A stretch of DNA of 64,000 bases from Bacteroidota bacterium (lineage in GTDB: Bacteria; Bacteroidota; Bacteroidia; B-17B0; Aurantibacillaceae), in assembly GCA_019638705.1 (NCBI GenBank), contig JAHBTI010000015.1:18457-82456 (forward strand). The letters run 5' to 3'. This document shows, one piece after another, positions 1 to 9,700 of this stretch (within the stretch, counting starts at the first letter, position 1; each line of letters starts with the position of its first letter). The position numbers and the translations under genes were made by a program. The notes beneath the pieces are model-generated. The model was not told the origin of the DNA, searched no databases, and saw only the letters and a program-made list of their open reading frames with translations.

Positions 1-710
1 GTATCATATCGGCACAGACCATCATATAAATTAGCGAACCAAATGTTACCTTTTTTATCTTCTATAATACTCATAATTTGACTGCTGAAACAACCATCTC
101 CGTTGACTTTAGTAAATCGGTTTAAAGAAGAATCGTAACGGCTCACACTTCCTGCTCTTTCGCCAGCCCAAATGTTTCCTGTATTATCTTCTAAAACACA
201 TTGAACAGCATCACTTCCTAATCCGTCTTTCATTGTAAAATGTGAGATGGATTTTTTATCAGTCTTTTCTGTAGATGGGGTATAACGGCATACTCCCCAG
301 CCATTTGTTCCAAACCAAAAATTTCCGTTTTTGTCTTCCAAAATAGAATTGATTTCGCCATTGCATACGGGTTCATTTTTCGTAATATCAGTAAATGATT
401 TTCCGTCATAATGACAAACACCTTTAGCAGTTCCAAACCAAATATTGCCAGCTTTGTCTTCTATAATAGTATAAATGAAGTTATCTGAAAGTCCATCACT
501 TTTTGTGAAATGAGTAAAGTTGTCTTTGTCAGTGTTGTATCGGTAAACCCCTTTACCAGTAGTTCCAAACCATAGATTTCCGCTATTGTCAAGTAAACTG
601 CAACGAAACATTTGTTCCAAGTCAGTTTTGTTTTGTCCGCTACAAAATGAAATACAGGCGAAAACAAAAAGGATTGAATAAATTAGTTTAAGTGTTAAAT
701 ATTTTTTCAT
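1..710 (-). CDS. Two-component-regulator-type propeller protein (partial)
   Basis: The reading frame is open from an ATG at 708-710 to the left edge, about 236 codons, so the C-terminus is missing. The N-terminus is hydrophobic and then reaches CSGQ, which looks like a signal peptide or lipoprotein signal. After it come five or more blades with the pattern EDxxGNIWFGT..GVxRYD, the Reg_prop repeat found in the periplasmic sensor part of hybrid two-component systems and in free-standing propellers. It is the first gene of the leftmost cassette, about 70 bases after the crossover point at 786/787. Whether a kinase domain follows cannot be seen. The family is clear; the function is not. Confidence 0.85.
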   Translation of the reverse strand, partial: MKKYLTLKLIYSILFVFACISFCSGQNKTDLEQMFRCSLLDNSGNLWFGTTGKGVYRYNTDKDNFTHFTKSDGLSDNFIYTIIEDKAGNIWFGTAKGVCHYDGKSFTDITKNEPVCNGEINSILEDKNGNFWFGTNGWGVCRYTPSTEKTDKKSISHFTMKDGLGSDAVQCVLEDNTGNIWAGERAGSVSRYDSSLNRFTKVNGDGCFSSQIMSIIEDKKGNIWFANLYDGLCRYD

Positions 711-778
711 TGGTCTGTTTACTTTTTAGTGTTTCTTTTTTTCTGTCAGTTTGATGTTAGCACTGTCGCCCTAGTATG

Positions 779-914
779 ACGCATAACGTCCCGGCGCTTG
801 GCGAGGTTGCGAACTTCGGAACCGATTGTTTTCTATCAAAGATAAAATTTCTTGCGAGAAATAAACGTGTATTTACCACAAAATTCGCAATCTTGCCAAA
901 CGCCTGTTACCTGC
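779..914 (-). other. attC-like site 1
   Basis: A 136-bp imperfect palindrome. On the - strand it opens with GCAGGTAACAGGCG and closes with ACGTTATGCGT. The inner arms are GTTTGGCAAGATTGCG against CGCAACCTCGCCAAGC, with unequal unpaired bases beside the terminal boxes. It lies only 5 bases after the DUF389 stop codon, as expected for the tail of a cassette. Its left-hand box GTTACCTGC (906-914) matches the start of the same cassette at 3807-3799. Confidence 0.78.
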
Positions 915-919
915 TGCCC

Positions 920-2218
920 TTATTCTTGCTTAATTAATTTCACATTTGTTGTTTTCAATTTTTGGTTTAACCAATTTCTGATTTTTTCTGTATCTACATT
1001 TTCCTTTTTATTGTCAATTTGATAAAGAACAACTGTTAGAACTTTTGTACTATCAGTATTTTGATTTATTGAATGTCTTCCAAACGATACATTTTTAAGT
1101 TCTGGAAATAATATTTTTAATTCTTTATGAATATCAGAATTATCAAATTTATATTCTCCAAGTTCATTTTGAAGATTATTTATTAAAACATCTTTTTCAG
1201 ATAAATTTTTATTTTGATTATTTACTTCATTTAAAATTTCACTTTTCAAATCTTTTGCATCTTGTTTTATTTCTAATTTTGTATTGCTAATATCGTATTG
1301 AATTAACCTTTGATTTAACACTTTTATTTCTTCAGCATTAAATTTTTTGGTCAAAAATGCGACTTCAATTTTTTTAGGATTTGAATTAAATTTTGTGTTC
1401 TTATAAATAATTGTGTAACCTTTATTTGTAAACTCGTTTGAGATAAATTGTTCTACTTTTTGAGCGTATTTTTTTTCATTGAGTAGATTATATGCTAAAT
1501 AAAAACTTGGAATTATCATAATCAAAATTAAAGAAGTGATACCGTATCTAATTTGTTTTTCAAATTTAGGATTCAAACTTCTTACAGGTTCATATTTTAG
1601 ATATTTAATTATCAAAAAAGTAGAAATACATATAAAAAAACAATTAATCGTGTATAAATAAAAAGCACCAAAAAAATAAGAAAAATTTCCTATCGCTAAA
1701 CCATAACCTGCTGTACAAAGAGGAGGCATTAAAGCCGTGGCGATAGCCACGCCTGGAATTGGATTTCCTTTTTCTACTCTTGTTAGAGCAATAACACCTA
1801 CTAAACCACCAAAAAAAGCGATAAGAACGTCATAAATATTTGGAGATGTTCTTGCTAATAGTTCTGATTGAGCTTCTTTAAATGGACTTATGTAAAAATA
1901 GATTGAAGCAACTGCTAAACTTACAATTGTTGCTATTAATAAATTTTTCCCTGACTTTTTTAGTAGATCAAAATCATAAATTGCCAAGGCTAAACCTGCT
2001 CCAACGATAGGACTCATTAGTGGAGAAATAAGCATTGCGCCAATTATTACTGCTGTTGAATTTACATTTAAACCAACCGATGCAATTACAATAGCACAAG
2101 CTAAAATCCATAAATTAGAACCACGAAAAGAGATATTAGATTTTATATTTTCTAAAACTTTTTTTTGTTCTTCTTCGCCTTTATGAAGACTAATAAAATC
2201 AAAAATTTTATTGCTCAT
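920..2218 (-). CDS. DUF389 (TIGR00341-type) membrane protein
   Basis: 432 residues. About residues 35-245 hold several membrane segments with the family signature NSTAVIIGAMLISPLMSPIVG and a second conserved block GNPIPGVAIATALMPPLC. A further segment lies near 230-250, and a charged soluble C-terminal half follows (about 250-432) with coiled-coil character. The biochemical role of DUF389 proteins is not established. The start codon overlaps the end of nhaA by 11 bases, so the two are translationally coupled. It is the last gene of its cassette and ends directly at attC-like site 1. The sequence is noticeably more AT-rich than the core genes further right, consistent with transfer. Confidence 0.88.
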   Translation of the reverse strand: MSNKIFDFISLHKGEEEQKKVLENIKSNISFRGSNLWILACAIVIASVGLNVNSTAVIIGAMLISPLMSPIVGAGLALAIYDFDLLKKSGKNLLIATIVSLAVASIYFYISPFKEAQSELLARTSPNIYDVLIAFFGGLVGVIALTRVEKGNPIPGVAIATALMPPLCTAGYGLAIGNFSYFFGAFYLYTINCFFICISTFLIIKYLKYEPVRSLNPKFEKQIRYGITSLILIMIIPSFYLAYNLLNEKKYAQKVEQFISNEFTNKGYTIIYKNTKFNSNPKKIEVAFLTKKFNAEEIKVLNQRLIQYDISNTKLEIKQDAKDLKSEILNEVNNQNKNLSEKDVLINNLQNELGEYKFDNSDIHKELKILFPELKNVSFGRHSINQNTDSTKVLTVVLYQIDNKKENVDTEKIRNWLNQKLKTTNVKLIKQE

Positions 2219-3362
2219 CGTCTATATATGTTTTGTTTAAAATTCCATTCAGAACAAAAAAGCCTAAAAGCCCTGCAATTAATGAGGAAATTAAAATTAT
2301 TAATTTTGAGTTATTTATTATTGTTTCGTTGTCAAATGCAAGCAAGGTTACAAAAATTGACATTGTAAATCCTATTCCTGCCAAAAGGCCAACGCCAAAA
2401 ATTGATTTCCAATTTAGATCTGTTGGTAATTTGCAAAGACCAAACGTCACGGCTAAAAAAGTAAAAATAAATATACCTAATGGTTTGCCTACGATTAGTC
2501 CAAGTGCAATGCCTAAACTATTGTTTTCTGTCAATGTTTGTGATATGTCGCCACTAAAAACGATTGCTGTGTTTGCCAAGGCAAAAATTGGCAAAATGAT
2601 AAACGCAACTGGTTTATGTAAAAAATGTTGTAAGATAAAGGAAGTTGATTTTTCGCCTCCATTTCCAAATGGAATAGCAAAAGCCAACAGAACGCCTGTA
2701 ATAGTGGCGTGAACACCTGAATGAAGCATAAAATACCACATTGCAACTCCACCTATTAAATACGGAAATAAATTTCTTACTTTTAGTTTTCCAATGATAA
2801 ATAACAAAAGCCAAATACCTAATGCAATAAATAAGTTTGTCCAAAGTAAGGTTTTTGTATAAAAAATTGCAATGATAATTATTGCACCCAAGTCGTCAAT
2901 AACGGCTAATGCGGTCAAAAATATTTTAAGTGAAGTTGGTACCCGATTTCCTAACAATGATAATATTCCCAATGCAAAAGCAATGTCAGTTGCCATTGGA
3001 ATTCCTGCTCCTGATTGTGTTGCAGTTCCAAAATTGAATAGCAAAAAAATTCCTGCTGGAATTAACATTCCACCCAATGCTCCAAAAATTGGCAATAAAG
3101 CATCTTTTATGTTTGAAAGTTCGCCTTGATAAATTTCTCTTTCTAATTCCAAACCAATGAGCAAAAAGAAAATTGTCATTAGTCCGTCATTTATCCAATG
3201 CTCAAAACTATGCCCTGCAAATTGAGTTTGAAAAAAGTCGTGATAACTTGTGCCATAATTTGAGTTAGCAAGTAAAAGCGATAAAATAGTACAAGCAATT
3301 AACACAAGTCCTCCTGTTTTTTCGCTGTTGAAAAAATCTTTAAATAATGTAGTTGCTTTCAT
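2208..3362 (-). CDS. nhaA: Na+/H+ antiporter NhaA
   Basis: 384 residues, normal length for NhaA, with about twelve hydrophobic segments. It exchanges protons for sodium or lithium across the inner membrane and protects against salt and alkaline pH. The paired aspartates of the ion site are present in VIDDLGAI (residues 156-157), as is the conserved ATDIAFALGIL block (Asp126). The GVHATITGVLLAF and GIGFTMSIFVTLLAF signatures are also seen. It is the middle gene of a three-gene cassette, 3 bases after the small membrane protein and overlapping DUF389. A stress-tolerance gene fits an accessory cassette. Confidence 0.95.
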   Translation of the reverse strand: MKATTLFKDFFNSEKTGGLVLIACTILSLLLANSNYGTSYHDFFQTQFAGHSFEHWINDGLMTIFFLLIGLELEREIYQGELSNIKDALLPIFGALGGMLIPAGIFLLFNFGTATQSGAGIPMATDIAFALGILSLLGNRVPTSLKIFLTALAVIDDLGAIIIIAIFYTKTLLWTNLFIALGIWLLLFIIGKLKVRNLFPYLIGGVAMWYFMLHSGVHATITGVLLAFAIPFGNGGEKSTSFILQHFLHKPVAFIILPIFALANTAIVFSGDISQTLTENNSLGIALGLIVGKPLGIFIFTFLAVTFGLCKLPTDLNWKSIFGVGLLAGIGFTMSIFVTLLAFDNETIINNSKLIILISSLIAGLLGFFVLNGILNKTYIDDEQ

Positions 3363-3365
3363 TTG

Positions 3366-3755
3366 TTATATAACGCTATAAATTAACCAAGTTCCAATTA
3401 AAAAAGCGAATGGCGAAATTAACTGAAAATAAATTGGCTTTAAAATATCTGCTGCTTTTAATGAAAAATTATGGTGCAGTTGTCTTGGAACAAAATACAA
3501 AACCAAAGAAGTTAGCAACATAAACCAACCAAATATTTTAAAAATGTCTGGATATTTTGAATTGTCTGCCGACAAAATAAGTCCAACGGCAGGAATTATT
3601 CTGGTAGTGATTTCGGCATAGTTAATAAAATTGGTACTTCCTGCTTTTCTCAAAATGTCATTTGCTTTTTTAGGATTGAAAAGCATCAAAAGTCCAACGC
3701 AAATAAAAAATATTCCGAAAAGTATAATTGTCCATTTTGATAATATGTCTATCAT
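3366..3755 (-). CDS. Small membrane protein of unknown function
   Basis: 129 residues from the ATG at 3755. A longer frame starts at 3842, but its first 29 codons run through the palindromic attC-like site 2, so 3755 is preferred. About four hydrophobic segments are visible (residues 7-27, 48-62, 73-89, 108-126), and a soluble loop contains FNPKKANDILRKAG. I do not recognise the family. It is the first gene of the NhaA-DUF389 cassette and lies 44 bases past the crossover point at 3806/3807 plus a short leader. A role accessory to the transporters is possible, but nothing in the sequence shows it. Confidence 0.7.
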   Translation of the reverse strand: MIDILSKWTIILFGIFFICVGLLMLFNPKKANDILRKAGSTNFINYAEITTRIIPAVGLILSADNSKYPDIFKIFGWFMLLTSLVLYFVPRQLHHNFSLKAADILKPIYFQLISPFAFLIGTWLIYSVI

Positions 3756-3798
3756 TTTTATCTGTCTGTTAGTTGTTTGTAAGGTCGCTCGTAGGGTT

Positions 3799-3933
3799 GC
3801 AGGTAACGTTTTGCGGCTTGGCGAAGGTGGCGATTTAACCACAAATGTTCATACGAAGCACACACTTCAAATTTACGAAAAACTGTCATACGAAGCACTG
3901 AACCGCCACTTTTGCCAAACCGCTGTTAGTGGC
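3799..3933 (-). other. attC-like site 2
   Basis: A 135-bp palindrome. On the - strand it opens GCCACTAACAGCGG and closes AAAACGTTACCTGC. The inner arms GGTTTGGCAAAAGTGGCGG and CGCCACCTTCGCCAAGCC pair with G-T wobbles, and a run of As beside the right box is left unpaired. The outer box GTTAGTGGC (3925-3933) matches the start of the ArsR cassette at 5242-5234. The other end (3807-3799) matches attC-like site 1. Inner arm sequences are shared with sites 1 and 3. Confidence 0.8.
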
Positions 3934-3956
3934 TGGGCTTCTTTGTTTTCCGTCTG

Positions 3957-4163
3957 TCAGCAACATTTTTTGTCCTGCTGAATTGGTGGACAAGCAACAC
4001 TTCCGTAGCTACAATAAACACAGCAGTCGCCTTGTTTTGGTTTTAGAACTTGTTTGCATTTTTCACATTCGTAAAAATATTGGCAAGCGTCTGTCGGCAT
4101 TGTTTCTTCTTTCTTATGTCCGCAGTTGGGGCAAGTTATTGTTGATTGTAATTTGATTTCCAT
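3957..4163 (-). CDS. GDCCVxC domain protein
   Basis: 68 residues with eleven cysteines. A CPNCGHKKEE zinc-ribbon-like start is followed by CEKCKQVLKPK and then the family signature GDCCVYCSYG, ending in CPPIQQDKKCC. Proteins with this motif are small metal-binding proteins that usually sit in mercury or other heavy-metal resistance loci. Their exact role is not established. It follows merTP by one base and shares its cassette with ArsR, so it probably belongs to the same metal response. The cassette ends 24 bases later at attC-like site 2. Confidence 0.9.
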   Translation of the reverse strand: MEIKLQSTITCPNCGHKKEETMPTDACQYFYECEKCKQVLKPKQGDCCVYCSYGSVACPPIQQDKKCC

Positions 4164-4164
4164 T

Positions 4165-4764
4165 TTAATTTTCTTTTTTGTCGGTTACAGAATATCCTGT
4201 TGAGTTTATTGCTTTTTCGATTTCAGAAATATTTGTTTTTGAGTTGTCAAATTCTATGATTGCATTTCCATTTTCATATGAAGCGTTTGAACTTATTATT
4301 CCTGTCAATTTATTTACTTCGTGATTTACGTGTTCTTCGCAACTCGCACAAGTCATTCCGCTAATCGTAAATTTTACTTTTTGAATATTGGATTTGTCCA
4401 CTACTATGATTTGCTTTTCTTTCTTTGGGTAGAAAATGCTTGAATAGTATGGAAAGGCAAGCATAACGATTGCAAATGCTGTTACAATTCCTAAAAACAT
4501 TTTTGACTGAATGAATTTTGGTTTTTCTTCTGTCTCACAGTTGCAGTCAATTTGCTTTTTAGGTTTCAACTTTTGATACCAAGCAAAACCAAGAACCAAA
4601 ATTGTCAAACCGATAAAATACGGTCTGAAAGGTTCGAGCCAAGAAAAAGTAGAAGCAAGTCCGCTTGTTCCTGCAATGAGAGCCAAGACAGGTGTAATGC
4701 AACACAATGAAGCTGCAATTGCTGTTAAAAGTCCTGCTCCGATTAGTTTGTTGTCTGTTTTCAT
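4165..4764 (-). CDS. merTP: Mercuric transport fusion protein MerTP
   Basis: 199 residues. The N-terminal MerT-like part has three hydrophobic segments (about 8-35, 47-64, 88-112) and the vicinal pair SLCCITP (Cys21, Cys22). A cytoplasmic-type DCNC pair follows at 74-76. The C-terminal 70 residues are a heavy-metal-associated domain with GMTCASC (Cys139, Cys142), equivalent to MerP. The fusion brings mercuric ion across the inner membrane. No mercuric reductase (merA) is present in the cassette, so on its own it would take mercury up without reducing it; a merA may lie elsewhere, or another metal may be moved. Its start overlaps the ArsR stop by 4 bases. Confidence 0.9.
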   Translation of the reverse strand: MKTDNKLIGAGLLTAIAASLCCITPVLALIAGTSGLASTFSWLEPFRPYFIGLTILVLGFAWYQKLKPKKQIDCNCETEEKPKFIQSKMFLGIVTAFAIVMLAFPYYSSIFYPKKEKQIIVVDKSNIQKVKFTISGMTCASCEEHVNHEVNKLTGIISSNASYENGNAIIEFDNSKTNISEIEKAINSTGYSVTDKKEN

Positions 4765-5135
4765 AATGTTTCTAATATTTTGTTTTCGTCAAGTATTTTG
4801 AAAAACGGTTTCAGCATTTTTTCATACTCTTTTGTTAATGAGTAAAAAATGGTTTGAGCTTCTCTTTCTGTTTCAATGAGTTTTCTGTCTTTGAGTTTTC
4901 GCAAGTGTTGTGAAACCGCTGAAATTGTCATACCAAGAATATCGCTTATATCACAAACACAAAGTCGTTTTTCTTCATAGATCAGAAAGAGAATTTTCAG
5001 TCTTACGTTGTTTCCTGCCAATTCAAGTCCGTTTGATAAATAGTCAAATGAGCCGTTGAGTTCTGAAACTCTGTCTTTACAGCGATTTATTTGTTTAATG
5101 TCCGCTTGTTGTCGTATGCAAGAATTGTTGTCCAT
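4761..5135 (-). CDS. ArsR/SmtB-family metal-responsive repressor
   Basis: 124 residues. A winged-helix domain spans about 35-105, with the metal-sensing motif LCVCD (Cys59, Cys61) in the alpha-3 position typical of ArsR/CadC/MerR-like sensors and a recognition helix SAVSQHLRKLK. Further cysteines occur at 6 and 19. It is the first gene of the merTP cassette and overlaps merTP, so it probably represses the operon until metal binds. A TAnnTTTG promoter box ends 4 bases before the start codon, so the message may be leaderless. Residues 1-30 are the least conserved part. Confidence 0.9.
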   Translation of the reverse strand: MDNNSCIRQQADIKQINRCKDRVSELNGSFDYLSNGLELAGNNVRLKILFLIYEEKRLCVCDISDILGMTISAVSQHLRKLKDRKLIETEREAQTIFYSLTKEYEKMLKPFFKILDENKILETL

Positions 5136-5139
5136 AGTA

Positions 5140-5169
5140 CAAAGGTAGTCAATTTGCTTATTTAAGCAA
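5140..5169 (-). promoter_or_regulatory. ArsR operon promoter and operator palindrome
   Basis: On the - strand TACCTTTG (5147-5140) fits the Bacteroidota -7 consensus TAnnTTTG. Immediately upstream lies TTGCTTAAATAAGCAA (5169-5154), two perfect 7-base arms around AA. It covers the area between the -7 and -33 boxes, where an ArsR/SmtB repressor would block the polymerase. Autoregulation is inferred from this position. Confidence 0.65.
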
Positions 5170-5233
5170 CTACTAAAATACGAAACATCAAAAAGAACCC
5201 GATTTGTCTGTCGGGTTGTGTCGTCATAGCCTT

Positions 5234-5370
5234 GCCACTAACGTTTTTGGGCTTGGCGAAGGTGGGGTTTAGAAAGTACTAAAGTTCAAATTTAGTACAA
5301 AAGTTAATAGAAACTACAAATGTTCAGCCTAGTACTAAAGCCCCACTTTTGCCAAACCCATGTTAGCGGT
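5234..5370 (-). other. attC-like site 3
   Basis: A 137-bp palindrome. On the - strand it opens ACCGCTAACATGGG and closes AAAACGTTAGTGGC. Inner arms GGGTTTGGCAAAAGTGGGG and CCCCACCTTCGCCAAGCCC pair along 19 positions with wobbles; an AAAAA tract remains unpaired. The box GTTAGCGGT (5362-5370) equals the start of the TetR-KS cassette (7313-7305). The box at 5242-5234 equals the one on site 2. Confidence 0.8.
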
Positions 5371-5385
5371 TCGTTCTTTTTCTCG

Positions 5386-6636
5386 TTATGGGTTCTCTTC
5401 AAACTTCTTGAAAATAGAACTTGCAATGTGTCCGCCAAAGCCAAAAGTATTACTCATTGCATAGTTGACATTCCTTTTTTGAGCAGTCCCAAGTGTCAAA
5501 TTAAATTTATCCGCAAATTCAGGTTCTATTTGTTCTGAGTTTATCGTTGGTGGGATAATGCTTTCTTGAATAGCTTTTATACAAGCAATGGCTTCAATCG
5601 CTCCTGCACCGCCAAGTAAATGTCCTGTCATAGATTTTGTGGCACTTATATTTGCATTTGGCTTTATACCAAATACTTTTTCCATTGCTTTCAATTCACT
5701 CAGATCTCCCGTAGGTGTAGATGTGGCATGTGCATTAATGTAGTCTATTTGGTTAGGATTAATTCCTGCTTCCTCTAATGCAAGAGTCATACCTAAAATT
5801 GCACCTTCGCCATCGGGGTGCGTACCAGTCAAATGATACGCATCGCCTGCAAGTCCACCGCCAACTATTTCTGCAAGTATAATTGCATTTCTTTTAATAG
5901 CGTGCTCATAACTTTCAAGAATAATTGCACCTGCACCTTCTCCTAACACAAAACCATCTCTTGTAATATCAAAGGGTTTTGATGCTTTGATAAAATTTTC
6001 GTTTTGCGTTGACAATGCTTTTGAAGCATTAAAACCACCTATCGAAGTTTGTGTAATTGACGCCTCAGAACCTCCTGTAATTATCAAATCTGCTTTGTTC
6101 CAACGAATATAATTAAATGCATCTATAATGGCAGTATTACTTGCTGAACACGCAGAAGCAGTTGTATAATTAACTCCTCTAAGTCCGTATTTAATTGAAA
6201 TAATGCCAGATGCGATATTAATAATTCTTTTGGGTATAAAAAAAGGATTAAATCTCGGTATTCCATCACTTTTAATAAATTCGCTTAATTGTTCCTCAAA
6301 AGTAGAAACTCCGCCATCTCCTGAACCCCAAATGACGCCAATTCTATCTTTGTTTAACGTTTCAAAATCAATATTTGCATTTTTTATCGCCTCGTCTGTT
6401 ACCAACAATGCATATTGCGTAAACAGGTCATATTTTCTTATTTCATTTTTTTCAAAAATATTCTGAGGGGCAAAATTCTTTACCTCACAAGCAAATCTTG
6501 TTTTAAATTTTGAAGTGTCAAATTTAGAAATTAATGTTGCCCCACTAATACCATTAATCAACGAGTGCCAATATTCAGCTACATTGTTTCCAATTGGAGT
6601 TACTGCTCCTAATCCTGTAATTACTACTCTTTTCAT
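5386..6636 (-). CDS. Beta-ketoacyl-ACP synthase II-like (FabF family)
   Basis: 416 residues, normal length for a KAS II enzyme. The catalytic triad is complete: Cys163 in TTASACSASNTA, His303 in NAHATSTPTG and His339 in SMTGHLLGGAGA. Lys334 and the C-terminal NTFGFGGHI block are also present. Such enzymes condense acyl chains with malonyl-ACP in fatty-acid, polyketide or aryl polyene synthesis. No acyl carrier protein or other pathway gene lies in the cassette, so it must draw on the host fatty-acid system or act as a substitute KAS. Its start overlaps the TetR stop by one base (TAATG), so the pair is coupled. It ends 16 bases before attC-like site 3. Confidence 0.92.
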   Translation of the reverse strand: MKRVVITGLGAVTPIGNNVAEYWHSLINGISGATLISKFDTSKFKTRFACEVKNFAPQNIFEKNEIRKYDLFTQYALLVTDEAIKNANIDFETLNKDRIGVIWGSGDGGVSTFEEQLSEFIKSDGIPRFNPFFIPKRIINIASGIISIKYGLRGVNYTTASACSASNTAIIDAFNYIRWNKADLIITGGSEASITQTSIGGFNASKALSTQNENFIKASKPFDITRDGFVLGEGAGAIILESYEHAIKRNAIILAEIVGGGLAGDAYHLTGTHPDGEGAILGMTLALEEAGINPNQIDYINAHATSTPTGDLSELKAMEKVFGIKPNANISATKSMTGHLLGGAGAIEAIACIKAIQESIIPPTINSEQIEPEFADKFNLTLGTAQKRNVNYAMSNTFGFGGHIASSIFKKFEENP

Positions 6637-7193
6637 TAGATATGTGGTCTTAAATCTTTAATTATGGCTTCTTTTACAATATCAAAATCCTCTGCTTGGG
6701 TAAGTCGAGATAATTGAACTATAGCTAAAATATTAGTTATTATCATTAACGCTTTTGTCCTTGGTGTAGTTTGAAATTCGAACATTTTTTGTTTTTTTCC
6801 TTCTGTTAAAATTTCAGTAACCCAAAGCAAAACAAGCTCAGCAAAGTTTTTTAGTTCATTTTTTATGCTGTCTTCAACCGTGTTTAAGTCTGTTGCTAAA
6901 GAACCAACAAGGCAAACTTTATTTTCCGATTTTATTTGAGAGTAGATTGATAGAAAACCATTTAGTTTTTGCAAAGGTGACTTGTTTTCAAACTCCTTTT
7001 TTAAATACTCAAACCGTTCAATATGTTCCTTTATGGTTGCTACACCTAAATCCGATTTAGTGGGAAAATGATAATGAATTGAAGCGGTTTTAATCCCAAT
7101 CTTGTTAGAAATATCTTTAAAACTAAAGGCGTTAAAACCATTACTTCTGATAAGATGGTCGGCTGTGTCAATAATTGTTTCTCTTGTTGTCAT
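6636..7193 (-). CDS. TetR/AcrR-family regulator
   Basis: 185 residues from the ATG at 7193 (MTTRETIIDTADHLIR). A frame starting at 7214 is rejected because its first codons lie inside the -7 promoter box at 7219-7212. The N-terminal helix-turn-helix is SFKDISNKIGIKTASIHYHF (about 28-47). The C-terminal part is the all-helical ligand-binding and dimer domain. It is the first gene of a cassette and translationally coupled to the ketoacyl synthase, which it probably controls. An imperfect palindrome over its own promoter suggests autoregulation. The ligand cannot be predicted. Confidence 0.88.
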   Translation of the reverse strand: MTTRETIIDTADHLIRSNGFNAFSFKDISNKIGIKTASIHYHFPTKSDLGVATIKEHIERFEYLKKEFENKSPLQKLNGFLSIYSQIKSENKVCLVGSLATDLNTVEDSIKNELKNFAELVLLWVTEILTEGKKQKMFEFQTTPRTKALMIITNILAIVQLSRLTQAEDFDIVKEAIIKDLRPHI

Positions 7194-7211
7194 AAAATAA
7201 ATATCTTTCAG

Positions 7212-7238
7212 CAAAGATACTACCTATTAGTAGATAGG
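7212..7238 (-). promoter_or_regulatory. TetR promoter and imperfect operator
   Basis: TATCTTTG (7219-7212, - strand) fits TAnnTTTG. The adjoining 18-mer CTATCTACTAATAGGTAG (7237-7220) matches its own reverse complement at 14 of 18 positions, a plausible TetR operator just upstream of the -7 box. Confidence 0.6.
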
Positions 7239-7304
7239 CAAAATATTTTATAATTTTTTATTAATTAAGAAAATTGGATTGTAGGTGGGTGTTGTTTTAG
7301 AATG

Positions 7305-7442
7305 ACCGCTAACGTTTCTCAGCTATACGCAGGCAGGGATTTTAACCACTGAACTTCCTACGAAGAACTGAACTTCAAATTTACCACTTTCCTGTCTTAC
7401 GAAGCACGAACCCCCTGCTTGCGTATAGGTGATGTTATGCGG
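7305..7442 (-). other. attC-like site 4
   Basis: A 138-bp palindrome. On the - strand it opens CCGCATAACATCACC and closes GAAACGTTAGCGGT. The inner arms CTATACGCAAGCAGGG and CCCTGCCTGCGTATAG differ in sequence from sites 1-3 but sit at the same distance from the ends, as expected for structure-recognised sites. The loop region shares words such as TTCAAATTTAC with site 2. The box GTTATGCGG (7434-7442) equals the array boundary at 8441-8433. Confidence 0.8.
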
Positions 7443-7473
7443 TCGGCTTTCATTTTCTCTTCTTTCTCGTTAA

Positions 7474-7499
7474 TTTGTCAAGCAAAGTTACTAAATTTG
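7474..7499 (+). promoter_or_regulatory. Possible erm(F) promoter
   Basis: TAAATTTG at 7492-7499 fits TAnnTTTG and lies 74 bases before the erm(F) start. A TTTG at 7474-7477 is present, but the spacing of 14 is shorter than the usual 19-21, so only the -7 box is persuasive. No IS4351-type element, which drives erm(F) in Bacteroides, is seen beside the gene. Confidence 0.35.
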
Positions 7500-7572
7500 C
7501 AGTCAAGCAATTTCAATTTTTGAATTATGAATTGTGATTTGAATTCAAGTATTCACCTGTAAGAAGTTACTA

Positions 7573-8373
7573 ATGACAAAAAAGAAATTGCCCGTTCGTT
7601 TTACGGGTCAGCACTTTACTATTGATAAAGTGCTAATAAAAGATGCAATAAGACAAGCAAATATAAGTAATCAGGATACGGTTTTAGATATTGGGGCAGG
7701 CAAGGGGTTTCTTACTGTTCATTTATTAAAAATCGCCAACAATGTTGTTGCTATTGAAAACGACACAGCTTTGGTTGAACATTTACGAAAATTATTTTCT
7801 GATGCCCGAAATGTTCAAGTTGTCGGTTGTGATTTTAGGAATTTTGCAGTTCCGAAATTTCCTTTCAAAGTGGTGTCAAATATTCCTTATGGCATTACTT
7901 CCGATATTTTCAAAATCCTGATGTTTGAGAGTCTTGGAAATTTTCTGGGAGGTTCCATTATCCTTCAGTTAGAACCTACACAAAAGTTATTTTCGAGGAA
8001 GCTTTACAATCCATATACCGTTTTCTATCATACTTTTTTTGATTTGAAACTTGTCTATGAGGTAGGTCCTGAAAGTTTCTTGCCACCGCCAACTGTCAAA
8101 TCAGCCCTGTTAAACATTAAAAGAAAACACTTATTTTTTGATTTTAAGTTTAAAGCCAAATACTTAGCATTTATTTCCTGTCTGTTAGAGAAACCTGATT
8201 TATCTGTAAAAACAGCTTTAAAGTCGATTTTCAGGAAAAGTCAGGTCAGGTCAATTTCGGAAAAATTCGGTTTAAACCTTAATGCTCAAATTGTTTGTTT
8301 GTCTCCAAGTCAATGGGTAAACTGTTTTTTGGAAATGCTGGAAGTTGTCCCTGAAAAATTTCATCCTTCGTAG
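7573..8373 (+). CDS. erm(F): 23S rRNA (adenine-N6) methyltransferase Erm(F)
   Basis: 266 residues, the length of Erm(F). From memory the protein is nearly identical to the Bacteroides Erm(F), from MTKKKLPVRFTGQHF to the VVPEKFHPS end. The SAM-binding motif LDIGAGKGF (residues 38-46) and the adenine-site motif NIPY (103-106) are intact. The enzyme dimethylates A2058 of 23S rRNA and gives resistance to macrolides, lincosamides and streptogramin B. It occupies the first cassette of the array, in the opposite orientation to the other cassette genes, reading towards the recombinase. No IS4351 or Tn4351 gene is near. Exact identity needs an alignment, but transfer of this gene is near certain. Confidence 0.95.
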   Translation: MTKKKLPVRFTGQHFTIDKVLIKDAIRQANISNQDTVLDIGAGKGFLTVHLLKIANNVVAIENDTALVEHLRKLFSDARNVQVVGCDFRNFAVPKFPFKVVSNIPYGITSDIFKILMFESLGNFLGGSIILQLEPTQKLFSRKLYNPYTVFYHTFFDLKLVYEVGPESFLPPPTVKSALLNIKRKHLFFDFKFKAKYLAFISCLLEKPDLSVKTALKSIFRKSQVRSISEKFGLNLNAQIVCLSPSQWVNCFLEMLEVVPEKFHPS

Positions 8374-8432
8374 TTCAAAGTCGGGTGGTTGTCAAGGTGA
8401 TTTTTTTTGGTTTGGTGTCGTCTTTTAAGCTG

Positions 8433-8466
8433 CCGCATAACTCTCTAATATGCGAAACTGCATATT
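8433..8466 (-). other. attI-like recombination site
   Basis: Read on the - strand: GCATATT (8453-8447), AGAGA, then GTTATGC (8441-8435), two inverted 7-base boxes around a 5-base spacer with the G/TT crossover in the second. A further box AATATGC (8466-8460) forms a perfect inverted repeat with 8453-8447 across 6 bases. The site separates erm(F) from the recombinase and its outer 9 bases GTTATGCGG equal the far end of the erm(F) cassette at 7434-7442. This is where an attI site is expected. Confidence 0.68.
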
Positions 8467-8543
8467 AAAGCCCAAATTAACAAATCTAACTCAAAAAAAC
8501 CATAATATTTCTGATAATAAACCACATATAGCTTTATCTGTTT

Positions 8544-8612
8544 TTGCGCATTTTGAATATTTATTTCTTGGGATTATTGCGCATATTTGTAGCAGATATT
8601 TAAAATGCGCAA
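8544..8612. promoter_or_regulatory. Inverted repeat before the recombinase start
   Basis: TTGCGCATTTT (8544-8554) and AAAATGCGCAA (8602-8612) are perfect 11-base inverted arms. A third copy of the core, TTGCGCAT, lies between them at 8577-8584. The right arm ends 2 bases before the recombinase ATG. These may be accessory recombinase-binding sites, or an operator or mRNA hairpin that limits recombinase expression. Confidence 0.6.
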
Positions 8613-8614
8613 CA

Positions 8615-9700
8615 ATGGAAAATCAAAAATTTAATTCGGCAAATTACAGTTTTGAACCTGCCACGCATAAAACGCAACAAGTTATTTGGATTAAATTTCC
8701 TTACAACAAAAATTTAATTGAAGCCCTGAAACAAGTTGCCAAAGTAAAATGGAGCAGTTCTAAAAAGGCTTGGTACGCCTTTGATAACGACCACCACCGC
8801 CAAATTTTTGTTTTACAGGCAAAATCGCATACACAAGAAATGTTTCGGCAAATTCACGCTGTAAACCAGCCTGCAATTCAACGTTATGTGCAACAATTGC
8901 AACTTAAAGCGTATAGTCCAAACACAATTAGAACTTACACCATAGAGTTTGCGCAGTTGTTAAAAACATTGAGTTCGCACAAAGTTGATGATTTGTCTTC
9001 TGAAAAAGTTCGCTCTTATTTTTTGTATTGTATAAACACACTTAAACTTTCCGAAACTTCGGTTCATAGCAGAATGAACGCCGTAAAATTTTACTTTGAA
9101 CAAGTTCTTAAACGCGATAAAATTTTTCTTGAAATTCCGCGTCCTAAAAAACCAAGCACTTTGCCCAAAGCCCTTTCGGTGCAAGATGTAAAGAAAATGC
9201 TTGGTACCGTAGAAAATGATAAACACAAACTCTTGTTGATGCTCTGTTACGGCATGGGTTTGCGCGTAAGCGAATTGGTAAAACTAAAAGTTACCGACAT
9301 TGACAGTAAACGTATGCAAGTATTGGTGCAATCGGGCAAAGGTAAAAAAGACCGTTATGTAAATCTTCCACAAAGCATTTTAAAATTGTTGCGTGCATAT
9401 TACAAAGAATACAAGCCCAAAAAATTTTTGTTTGAAGGTCATTTTGGCGGTGCGTATTCTGTTCGCAGCGTGCAAAATGTTTTTAAATCAGCCATGCGAA
9501 AAGCAAAAATATATAAACCCGTTGGCATTCACAGTTTGCGCCATAGCTACGCCACACATTTATTAGAAGCCGGCACGGATATTTCTTTTATTCAAAAACT
9601 GCTCGGACACAACAACATCAAAACTACTTTAATTTACACTCAAATTTCTGATAAAAACCTTTCAAAAGTGCAAAGTCCTTTGGATAAACTGTTGGAGTAA
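8615..9700 (+). CDS. IntI/Xer-like tyrosine recombinase
   Basis: 361 residues from the ATG at 8615; a frame from 8450 exists, but its first 55 codons cross the attI-like boxes. Residues 1-75 are an extra N-terminal domain with KWSSSKKAWYAFDN. Residues about 85-170 are the SAM-like core-binding domain and 185-361 the catalytic domain. Catalytic residues are visible: Arg217 (GLRVSEL), Lys242 or Lys244, His306 and Arg309 (HSLRHSYATHLLE), His332 (LLGH) and Tyr341. The tail SKVQSPLDKL closely recalls the VRSPLDAL end of integron integrases. The roughly 30-residue insertion that defines IntI before the HxxR motif is absent. It is transcribed divergently from most of the cassettes. It probably catalyses cassette insertion and excision; generic Xer-like integrase is the alternative. 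Confidence 0.85.
   Translation: MENQKFNSANYSFEPATHKTQQVIWIKFPYNKNLIEALKQVAKVKWSSSKKAWYAFDNDHHRQIFVLQAKSHTQEMFRQIHAVNQPAIQRYVQQLQLKAYSPNTIRTYTIEFAQLLKTLSSHKVDDLSSEKVRSYFLYCINTLKLSETSVHSRMNAVKFYFEQVLKRDKIFLEIPRPKKPSTLPKALSVQDVKKMLGTVENDKHKLLLMLCYGMGLRVSELVKLKVTDIDSKRMQVLVQSGKGKKDRYVNLPQSILKLLRAYYKEYKPKKFLFEGHFGGAYSVRSVQNVFKSAMRKAKIYKPVGIHSLRHSYATHLLEAGTDISFIQKLLGHNNIKTTLIYTQISDKNLSKVQSPLDKLLE

What the first reader, a model, noticed from the sequence alone, without database searches (positions are those of the whole stretch)
1..9700. Integron-like cassette array in a Bacteroidota chromosome
Seen: four palindromes of 135-138 bp separate five gene units, and the terminal 9 bases agree between the two ends of each unit (GTTATGCGG, GTTAGCGGT, GTTAGTGGC, GTTACCTGC) but not between the two ends of each palindrome. 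That pattern arises only if each unit once existed as a circle whose own palindrome was completed by its own first bases, and entered by a G/TT crossover. A tyrosine recombinase lies at one end, divergent. Known: this is the logic of integron attC sites. Inferred: the boxes (GTTA then variable) do not fit the usual GTTRRRY, so standard integron searches would probably miss the array; similar TAACG...GTTA palindromes between Bacteroidota genes may be a large unrecognised cassette pool.
Basis: partly seen in the sequence, partly recalled or inferred. Interest (0 to 1): 0.97.

Follow-up and report, generated by a model that had tools for sequence, protein, structure and literature searches.

The report
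Patchless integron shuffling Bacteroidota gene cassettes
This stretch of a Bacteroidota chromosome is a row of swappable gene cassettes, one carrying the antibiotic-resistance gene erm(F), set beside a recombinase unlike known integron integrases that likely inserts and excises them, and the same kind of cassette joint turned up in half of the sampled species of the phylum.

Summary
Four palindromes (window 784-909, 3804-3928, 5239-5365, 7310-7437) separate five units whose ends match per unit, not per palindrome; nine such sites span 22 kb of the contig. A covariance model finds such sites in 149 of 296 sampled genomes of the phylum. In 80 loci of the neighbouring recombinase's family, 118 of 121 sites point the same way relative to it. 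57 of 67 adjacent site pairs share cassette ends (best of 2000 shuffles: 10). An attI-like motif lies beside the recombinase in 61 of 81 loci (one copy elsewhere, misoriented). The ArsR-MerTP cassette recurs at 97-98% identity in four other families and the erm(F) cassette in seven fetched plasmids, cut at the predicted ends. The recombinase keeps the catalytic residues, lacks the IntI-specific insert and falls outside IntI; site presence follows this recombinase family and not IntI. A published Riemerella transformation moved a unit whose reported flank lengths coincide with such a cassette. Best reading: an integron-type system run by a patchless recombinase. Its activity and single-strand folding are inferred, not shown; parts of the idea (attC-like fold in Riemerella) are in print.

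The parts
8615..9700 (+). Tyrosine recombinase, 361 aa (ORF open from 8450): N-terminal bbabb-a domain, SAM-like core-binding domain, catalytic domain without the IntI insert
8439..8457 (-). attI-like site: cassette end AAC (8439-8441) followed by TCTCTAATATGCGAAA (8442-8457), 174 bp from the recombinase start; consensus TCNCAAATATACGCAA
7310..8441 (-). Cassette 1 (next to attI): erm(F), ends GTTATGCGG; gene 7573-8373 on the + strand, against the array direction
7310..7437 (+). attC-like palindrome of cassette 1 (strand = the one modelled, 'bottom' relative to the array)
5239..7313 (-). Cassette 2: TetR-type regulator (6636-7214) and FabF-type ketoacyl synthase (5386-6636), ends GTTAGCGGT
5239..5365 (+). 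attC-like palindrome of cassette 2
3804..5242 (-). Cassette 3: ArsR (4761-5135), MerTP (4165-4764), small Cys-rich protein (3957-4163), ends GTTAGTGGC
3804..3928 (+). attC-like palindrome of cassette 3
784..3807 (-). Cassette 4: small membrane protein (about 3366-3755), NhaA antiporter (2208-3362), DUF389 protein (920-2218), ends GTTACCTGC
784..909 (+). attC-like palindrome of cassette 4
1..787 (-). Cassette 5 (cut by the window start): Reg_prop beta-propeller protein (3-710), end GTTATGCGT

Best explanation
This is an integron-like platform: a recombinase gene, an attI-like site beside it and a row of gene cassettes, each with one attC-like palindrome, in which the recombinase likely inserts incoming cassettes at attI and excises or shuffles them. 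Shown: the arrangement, the common orientation, the cassette-specific ends, the attI-like motif, and the recurrence of single cassettes with exact ends among different neighbours and in other genomes. Inferred: that the adjacent recombinase is the enzyme; that the exchange falls within the shared GTT of the boxes; that the palindrome is used as a folded single strand (the strand opposite to the array direction); that a cassette circle, or linear DNA taken up by transformation, is the incoming form; that the newest cassette (here erm(F)) is the one next to attI. The enzyme lacks the IntI insert that reads folded attC sites, so folded sites would have to be recognised in another way; its N-terminal HARP-like/DUF5710-like domain is a candidate.
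For: Orientation: 118 of 121 sites in 45 of 80 recombinase loci. Cassette ends: 57 of 67 pairs. attI motif: 61 of 81 loci in the right place and orientation, one other copy, misoriented, in 2.35 Mb of both strands; 21 of the 35 loci without a detected site also have it. Mobility: ArsR-MerTP cassette 97-98% identical in four other families with both breaks at the predicted ends; erm(F) cassette whole in 7 of 7 fetched plasmids that keep the palindrome; constant end boxes with changing neighbours. Association: recombinase family (E<=1e-80) and sites co-occur, 47 of 53, odds ratio 10.8, p 2e-10, also within classes; IntI shows no such link (odds ratio 0.93, p 0.89 outside the window's class). Gene direction: in 71 of 85 cassettes with an ORF the longest one reads toward its own site, stop a median of 25 nt from it. 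Fold: 17 of 22 pairs with compensatory change, 93.1% of cells paired against 69.2% shuffled. Catalytic R, K, H, R, H, Y all present. PMC13148043 (section 11 read): homology-independent insertion of aph(3')-IVb with 27 bp 5' and 140 bp 3' flanks; on the named strain's plasmid these lengths end inside the AAC of both predicted cassette ends.
Against: No recombination was observed here. 35 of 80 recombinase loci have no detected site (31 of these have under 3 kb of contig on one side). 3 of 121 sites are misoriented, one of them in Riemerella (L163), whose recombinase also has no attI motif. 10 of 67 pairs fail the end match. Of 68 genomes with at least 5 sites, 31 lack the recombinase at my threshold. 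Strand choice is weak: the modelled strand folds better in 70 of 107 sites, worse in 34, and the wobble bias is position-bound: offsets 12-20 after AAC have 181 G.T and 0 A.C, but offsets 8-10 have 1 and 58 and offset 25 has 0 and 23; without the three richest offsets the total reverses, 56 to 108. HARP likeness is weak (not among the 50 rows).
Confidence: 0.88

Rival explanations
1. A canonical integron or CALIN: the palindromes are ordinary attC sites moved by a true IntI elsewhere in the genome, and the adjacent recombinase is a bystander.
For: 84 of 296 genomes of the phylum carry an integrase above the TIGR02249 cut-off; site layout and cassette logic are those of attC; canonical arrays give weak same-strand matches to the model in 4 of 20 IntI neighbourhoods (E 0.0035 to 0.43).
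Against: None of the own genome's recombinases passes the cut-off. Sites follow the patchless family, not IntI. 18 of 20 IntI neighbourhoods have no match at E<=1e-3; the exceptions are L248 (four sites, facing away from the IntI) and L243 (one, 27 bits). No match in the class 1 integron of R388.
Confidence: 0.05
2. Host XerC/XerD, or a phage- or ISCR-like recombinase, moves the units as dif-type modules; the palindromes are just paired binding sites in duplex DNA.
For: The recombinase is Xer-like; inverted repeats can be kept by a dimeric protein; strand asymmetry of the fold is modest.
Against: Array orientation and the attI motif are tied to this recombinase gene; unit ends match per unit; the sites are about 126 bp with a variable middle and compensatory changes along two helices, not short dif-like sites (recalled: about 28 bp).
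Confidence: 0.04
3. Palindromic repeats (REP- or MITE-like) scattered between genes; end matches are coincidence or mutational pairing, and shared units reflect ordinary recombination.
For: Sites also occur on contigs without a recombinase of the family in view.
Against: End matches exceed all 2000 shuffles; shared units break at the same base at both ends with unrelated flanks; orientation is fixed relative to the recombinase.
Confidence: 0.02

Closest known systems
Integron (intI - attI - attC cassette array)
   Same: Recombinase beside an attI-like site, divergent or inverted; one-way array; one palindrome per cassette, gene stop close to it; cassette ends complementary within a cassette; GTT core
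   Different: Recombinase lacks the IntI insert (89 against 131 residues between the catalytic R and H) and misses the integron-integrase cut-off; box GTTRNNNG instead of GTTRRRY; fixed AACG...TGTTR edges and own site family
XerA/XerH-type simple tyrosine recombinases (PDB 5hxy, 4a8e, 5jjv)
   Same: Core-binding and catalytic domains, all catalytic residues; top sequence and fold matches
   Different: Linked to a cassette array and attI-like motif; extra N-terminal domain; grouped nearer IntI than the three Xer proteins in my tree (few Xer rows)
aph(3')-IVb unit of Riemerella anatipestifer (PMC13148043, March 2026)
   Same: Same kind of site in its 140 bp 3' flank, called analogous to attC by the authors; inserts without homology
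   Different: Authors name no recombinase, attI or cassette array; 'integrase' and 'recombinase' do not occur in the text
HARP domain of SMARCAL1 (PDB 4o66) / DUF5710
   Same: Top Foldseek hit of the N-terminal domain (E 0.27, probability 0.35); weak Pfam matches: DUF5710 in 20 of 26 members (best 1.2e-4), HARP in 5 of 26 (best 0.0026)
   Different: All matches below Pfam's cut-offs; function in a recombinase untested

Membership tests
Integron | Array of cassettes, each with one palindromic recombination site in a common orientation | tested here: met
   118 of 121 sites concordant; 57 of 67 adjacent pairs share cassette ends
Integron | attI site next to the integrase gene where the array begins | tested here: met
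   Conserved motif in 61 of 81 loci, right place and orientation; one other copy
Integron | Cassettes move as discrete units | tested here: met
   Comparative only; published homology-independent insertion, section 11 of PMC13148043
Integron | Integrase of the IntI family with the IntI-specific insert | tested here: not met
   R-to-H spacing 89 against 131 in 24 IntI; 193.1 bits against 265; IntI clade 100/100 excludes it
Integron | Recombination of the adjacent enzyme with attI and attC shown | not testable with these tools
   needs an assay
Canonical attC sites | R box GTTRRRY | tested here: not met
   11 of 114
Canonical attC sites | Imperfect hairpin, one strand favoured | tested here: inconclusive
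   Hairpin and covariation yes; strand bias modest, 70 to 34 of 107, and position-bound
Canonical attC sites | Extrahelical bases docked by the integrase | not tested
   Bulges counted (29 left arm, 16 right arm) but not assigned a role
HARP domain | Match above Pfam's gathering score | tested here: not met
   14.7 bits against 25 for the window protein; 5 of 26 members at E<=0.1
HARP domain | HARP fold | tested here: inconclusive
   4o66 top by Foldseek but E 0.27; not in the 50 rows

The most novel reading that the evidence does not exclude
A second integron lineage: a patchless sister group of IntI, with its own attI and attC families, is the main cassette-capture system of the class of Bacteroidota to which this genome belongs and the assembly line of that phylum's resistance clusters (erm(F), tet(X), blaOXA-347, ere(D), estT, aph(3')-IVb), and it handles folded single strands through a HARP-like N-terminal domain instead of the IntI I2 helix. 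It would show that cassette capture either predates that helix or arose twice.
Probability: 0.45. Interest if true: 0.96.

Novelty: new variant of a known kind. Interest (0 to 1): 0.9.

Why it matters
Integron integrases are held to have gained single-strand recombination through the I2 helix, and the lack of intermediates is noted (PMC7790495, passages). A working integron with no such insert would give that missing comparison. Practically, IntegronFinder 2.0 reported within Bacteroidetes one complete integron, in Salinibacter, after In0 only (PMC9024848, passages), whereas half of the sampled genomes of the phylum carry sites of this kind, and known resistance genes of Bacteroidota plasmids sit in such cassettes, so resistance clusters now described as insertion-sequence mosaics may be read as cassette arrays.

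Tried and rejected
A general strand bias of G.T over A.C pairs: rejected as stated; totals 196 to 108, but the sign depends on position. 'Bacteroidota lack IntI': rejected. Rfam: no family matched the window at the gathering score, so the site is not in that library at that threshold. HARP membership: not established (the last listed no HARP chain among 50 rows). Resolving the crossover base: not possible, AAC is shared by all boxes, and the base after AACG toggles G/T between copies of one cassette. Search for the Riemerella insertion site beside its recombinase: L163 shows no relE/hthR/cdf neighbours by the ORFs I read, and it is another strain (CCUG25054) than the published recipient. Whether the work is already in print: searches in the open-licence PMC library found only PMC13148043 as a partial forerunner; subscription papers and preprints are not held. 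Papers: PMC13148043 section 11 and passages; PMC9024848, PMC8352920, PMC8618304, PMC7790495, PMC8138268, PMC10100655, PMC8694125 and PMC3414803 passages only; all others listings.

Rows dropped: one search used 111 of 130 sites (the rest lacked a clear AAC/GTT edge or flank); and one search used 110 distinct sites with a clear stem of 134; one search used 107; the tree left out the ISCR-type integrase and used 16 of the 20 IntI neighbourhoods. The attI consensus was read by eye from the 40 junctions (three of them, L124, L150, L171, lie over 1 kb from the recombinase and lack it); one search then scanned those same loci as well as 35 others. The threshold E<=1e-80 for 'has the recombinase' is mine. 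Genome searches over 40 genomes score at most 11 sites per genome.
Full report
What is there. The window is part of an 82,456-base contig (positions 18457-82456) of a Bacteroidota genome. On the strand opposite to the recombinase, five units are separated by four palindromes, TAACG...GTTA, 125-128 bp. Five more such sites lie on the same contig beyond the window start, nine in all over 22 kb, with one gap of 5.6 kb whose ends do not match. Reading away from the recombinase the cassettes hold erm(F); a TetR-type regulator with a FabF-type synthase; ArsR with MerTP and a small Cys-rich protein; a small membrane protein with NhaA and a DUF389 protein; and a Reg_prop protein cut by the window. erm(F) is the only one of these whose gene runs against the array.

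Ends belong to cassettes, not to palindromes. In this contig 7 of 8 adjacent pairs share ends. Over 45 loci of related recombinases plus this contig, 57 of 67 pairs share at least four bases beyond GTT; shuffles reach at most 10 (mean 3.4), and the two ends of one palindrome do so in 10 of 111. Boxes follow GTTRNNNG (100 of 114); the usual GTTRRRY fits 11 of 114.

The site family. A covariance model from 18 sites has 22 pairs, 17 with compensatory changes; 93.1% of cells pair, shuffles average 69.2% (the structure was derived from the same alignment, so it leans toward it). The model finds 26 matches at E<=0.1 in the own genome on ten contigs and matches at E<=1e-3 in 149 of 296 genomes of the phylum. 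It finds none in the class 1 integron plasmid R388.

The recombinase. It keeps all catalytic residues but has 89 residues between the catalytic R and H, as its relatives do (89-90 in 20 of 20 rows), against 131 in 24 IntI including 16 from this phylum and 92-96 in three Xer proteins. It scores 193.1 bits with the integron-integrase model (cut-off 265), in two pieces with model positions 180-240 missing. In a tree of 47 rows IntI is a clade (100/100), this family is a clade (100/99), and the array-linked recombinases together form one group (94/83) next to IntI and apart from Xer. Only three Xer rows were used and the program warned of long branches, so a sister relation to IntI is suggested, not established. 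Members of the family carry an extra N-terminal domain (model pLDDT 79) with weak likeness to DUF5710 and HARP; some array recombinases lack it.

Recombinase, attI and array go together. In 80 loci of the family, 121 sites were found in 45; 83 lie upstream and point one way, 35 lie beyond the 3' end and point the other way, 3 disagree. That is one rule: the array always reads away from the recombinase. At the recombinase-side end of the array, AAC is followed by TCNCAAATATACGCAA in 61 of 81 loci, 111-235 bp upstream of the gene or 132-581 bp beyond its end; the only other copy in 2.35 Mb of both strands is a misoriented one beside the recombinase of L123. In the window it is 8442-8457. Of the 35 loci without a detected site, 21 have the motif. 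In the phylum sample 47 of 53 genomes with the recombinase (E<=1e-80) have sites (odds ratio 10.8, p 2e-10); IntI shows no association (odds ratio 0.93, p 0.89 outside the window's class; 0.57 over the whole sample). Around 20 IntI genes the model gave E<=1e-3 in two neighbourhoods: four sites in L248, facing away from the IntI, and one in L243.

The units move. The erm(F) cassette (window 7310-8441) is whole, from its first or second base to its last, in 7 of 7 fetched plasmid records that keep the palindrome, at 94.6-99.8% identity by piece, in five of them with an insert in its middle. The box outside its palindrome changes with the neighbour: ere(D), tet(X2) and others, identical in L034 and L039. 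erm(F), blaOXA-347, estT, ere(D) and tet(X2) keep their own boxes across records; one blaOXA unit, in L031, has unlike ends. In some Bacteroides records only the gene side is kept. The ArsR-MerTP cassette is 97-98% identical in four genomes of other families (126 of 395 genomes of the class match at E<=1e-20, many by the palindrome or gene alone); at both ends identity stops at AAC/G and an unrelated neighbour begins, on one side with another palindrome.

Link to published work. PMC13148043 (section 11) reports that aph(3')-IVb enters Riemerella by natural transformation without homology, always with 27 bp before and 140 bp after the gene, and that the 140 bp fold resembles attC; no enzyme is named. 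The plasmid of strain RCAD0416, named there, has a 262-aa APH(3') gene whose 3' flank holds a site of this family (E 8e-16). Counting 140 and 27 bp from that gene ends inside the AAC of both predicted cassette ends. I matched gene and strain by name and length, not by the authors' sequence. A Riemerella anatipestifer genome in the collection carries a member of the recombinase family (L163), but without the attI motif, with one misoriented site, and in another strain.

Mechanism. Most likely: the recombinase binds attI and the cassette's palindrome, exchanges strands within GTT, and so inserts a cassette next to itself; recombination between two palindromes releases or reorders cassettes. erm(F), at 99% identity to copies in Bacteroides and Riemerella and next to attI, fits a recent arrival. 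Whether the palindrome acts as a folded single strand is open: the modelled strand folds better in 4 of 4 window sites and 70 of 107 overall (34 worse), spacers are unequal (5-6 and 1-3 nt), and core offsets 12-20 keep only G.T exceptions (181 to 0 A.C), but offsets 8-10 and 25 show the reverse.

Verdict. It works like an integron and has an integron's anatomy, but its recombinase fails the test for IntI and its sites fail the canonical box. I file it as a new variant of a known kind.

Noticed in passing
window 8534-8622: Inverted repeat (27 nt arms, 81% complementary) with TGCGCATTTT-like words between attI and the recombinase start; perhaps an operator or a second binding site.
   Followed up: no
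G000 contigs C12, C44, C45, C1, C40, C16, C37 (L041-L044): More sites of the same family on other contigs of the own genome, whose integron-integrase search listed no further family member there.
   Followed up: partly
phylum sample: 84 of 296 genomes carry an IntI-type integrase above the NCBIfam cut-off, 83 of them outside the window's class; canonical integrons in this phylum look commonly under-reported too.
   Followed up: partly
L034:2835-4123 and L039:1955-3252: erm-type cassette alone in small plasmids, with an outer box (GTTTGGTTG) unlike the cassette boxes: possibly insertion at a non-cassette site.
   Followed up: no
L227:3001-6843: Bacteroides plasmid where the erm(F)-type palindrome lies inverted and away from erm(F), across blaOXA-347 and ISBf12 copies: a cassette array broken up by insertion sequences.
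   Followed up: partly
L129, L130: Family members with attI motif and arrays in Kapaibacterium and Ignavibacteria records, outside Bacteroidota in the narrow sense.
   Followed up: no
window 3804-3813; L211-L214; L031-L037: The base after AACG toggles between G and T among copies of the same cassette without following the neighbour in the erm(F)/ere(D) case.
   Followed up: partly
L215: ArsR-MerTP genes at 92% identity without palindrome ends in another genome: the genes also exist outside the cassette.
   Followed up: no
L205:2027-3139, L199, L201, L204: A second clade of array recombinases, partly with a related N-terminal domain, with their own junction sequences next to arrays of the same site family.
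   Followed up: partly
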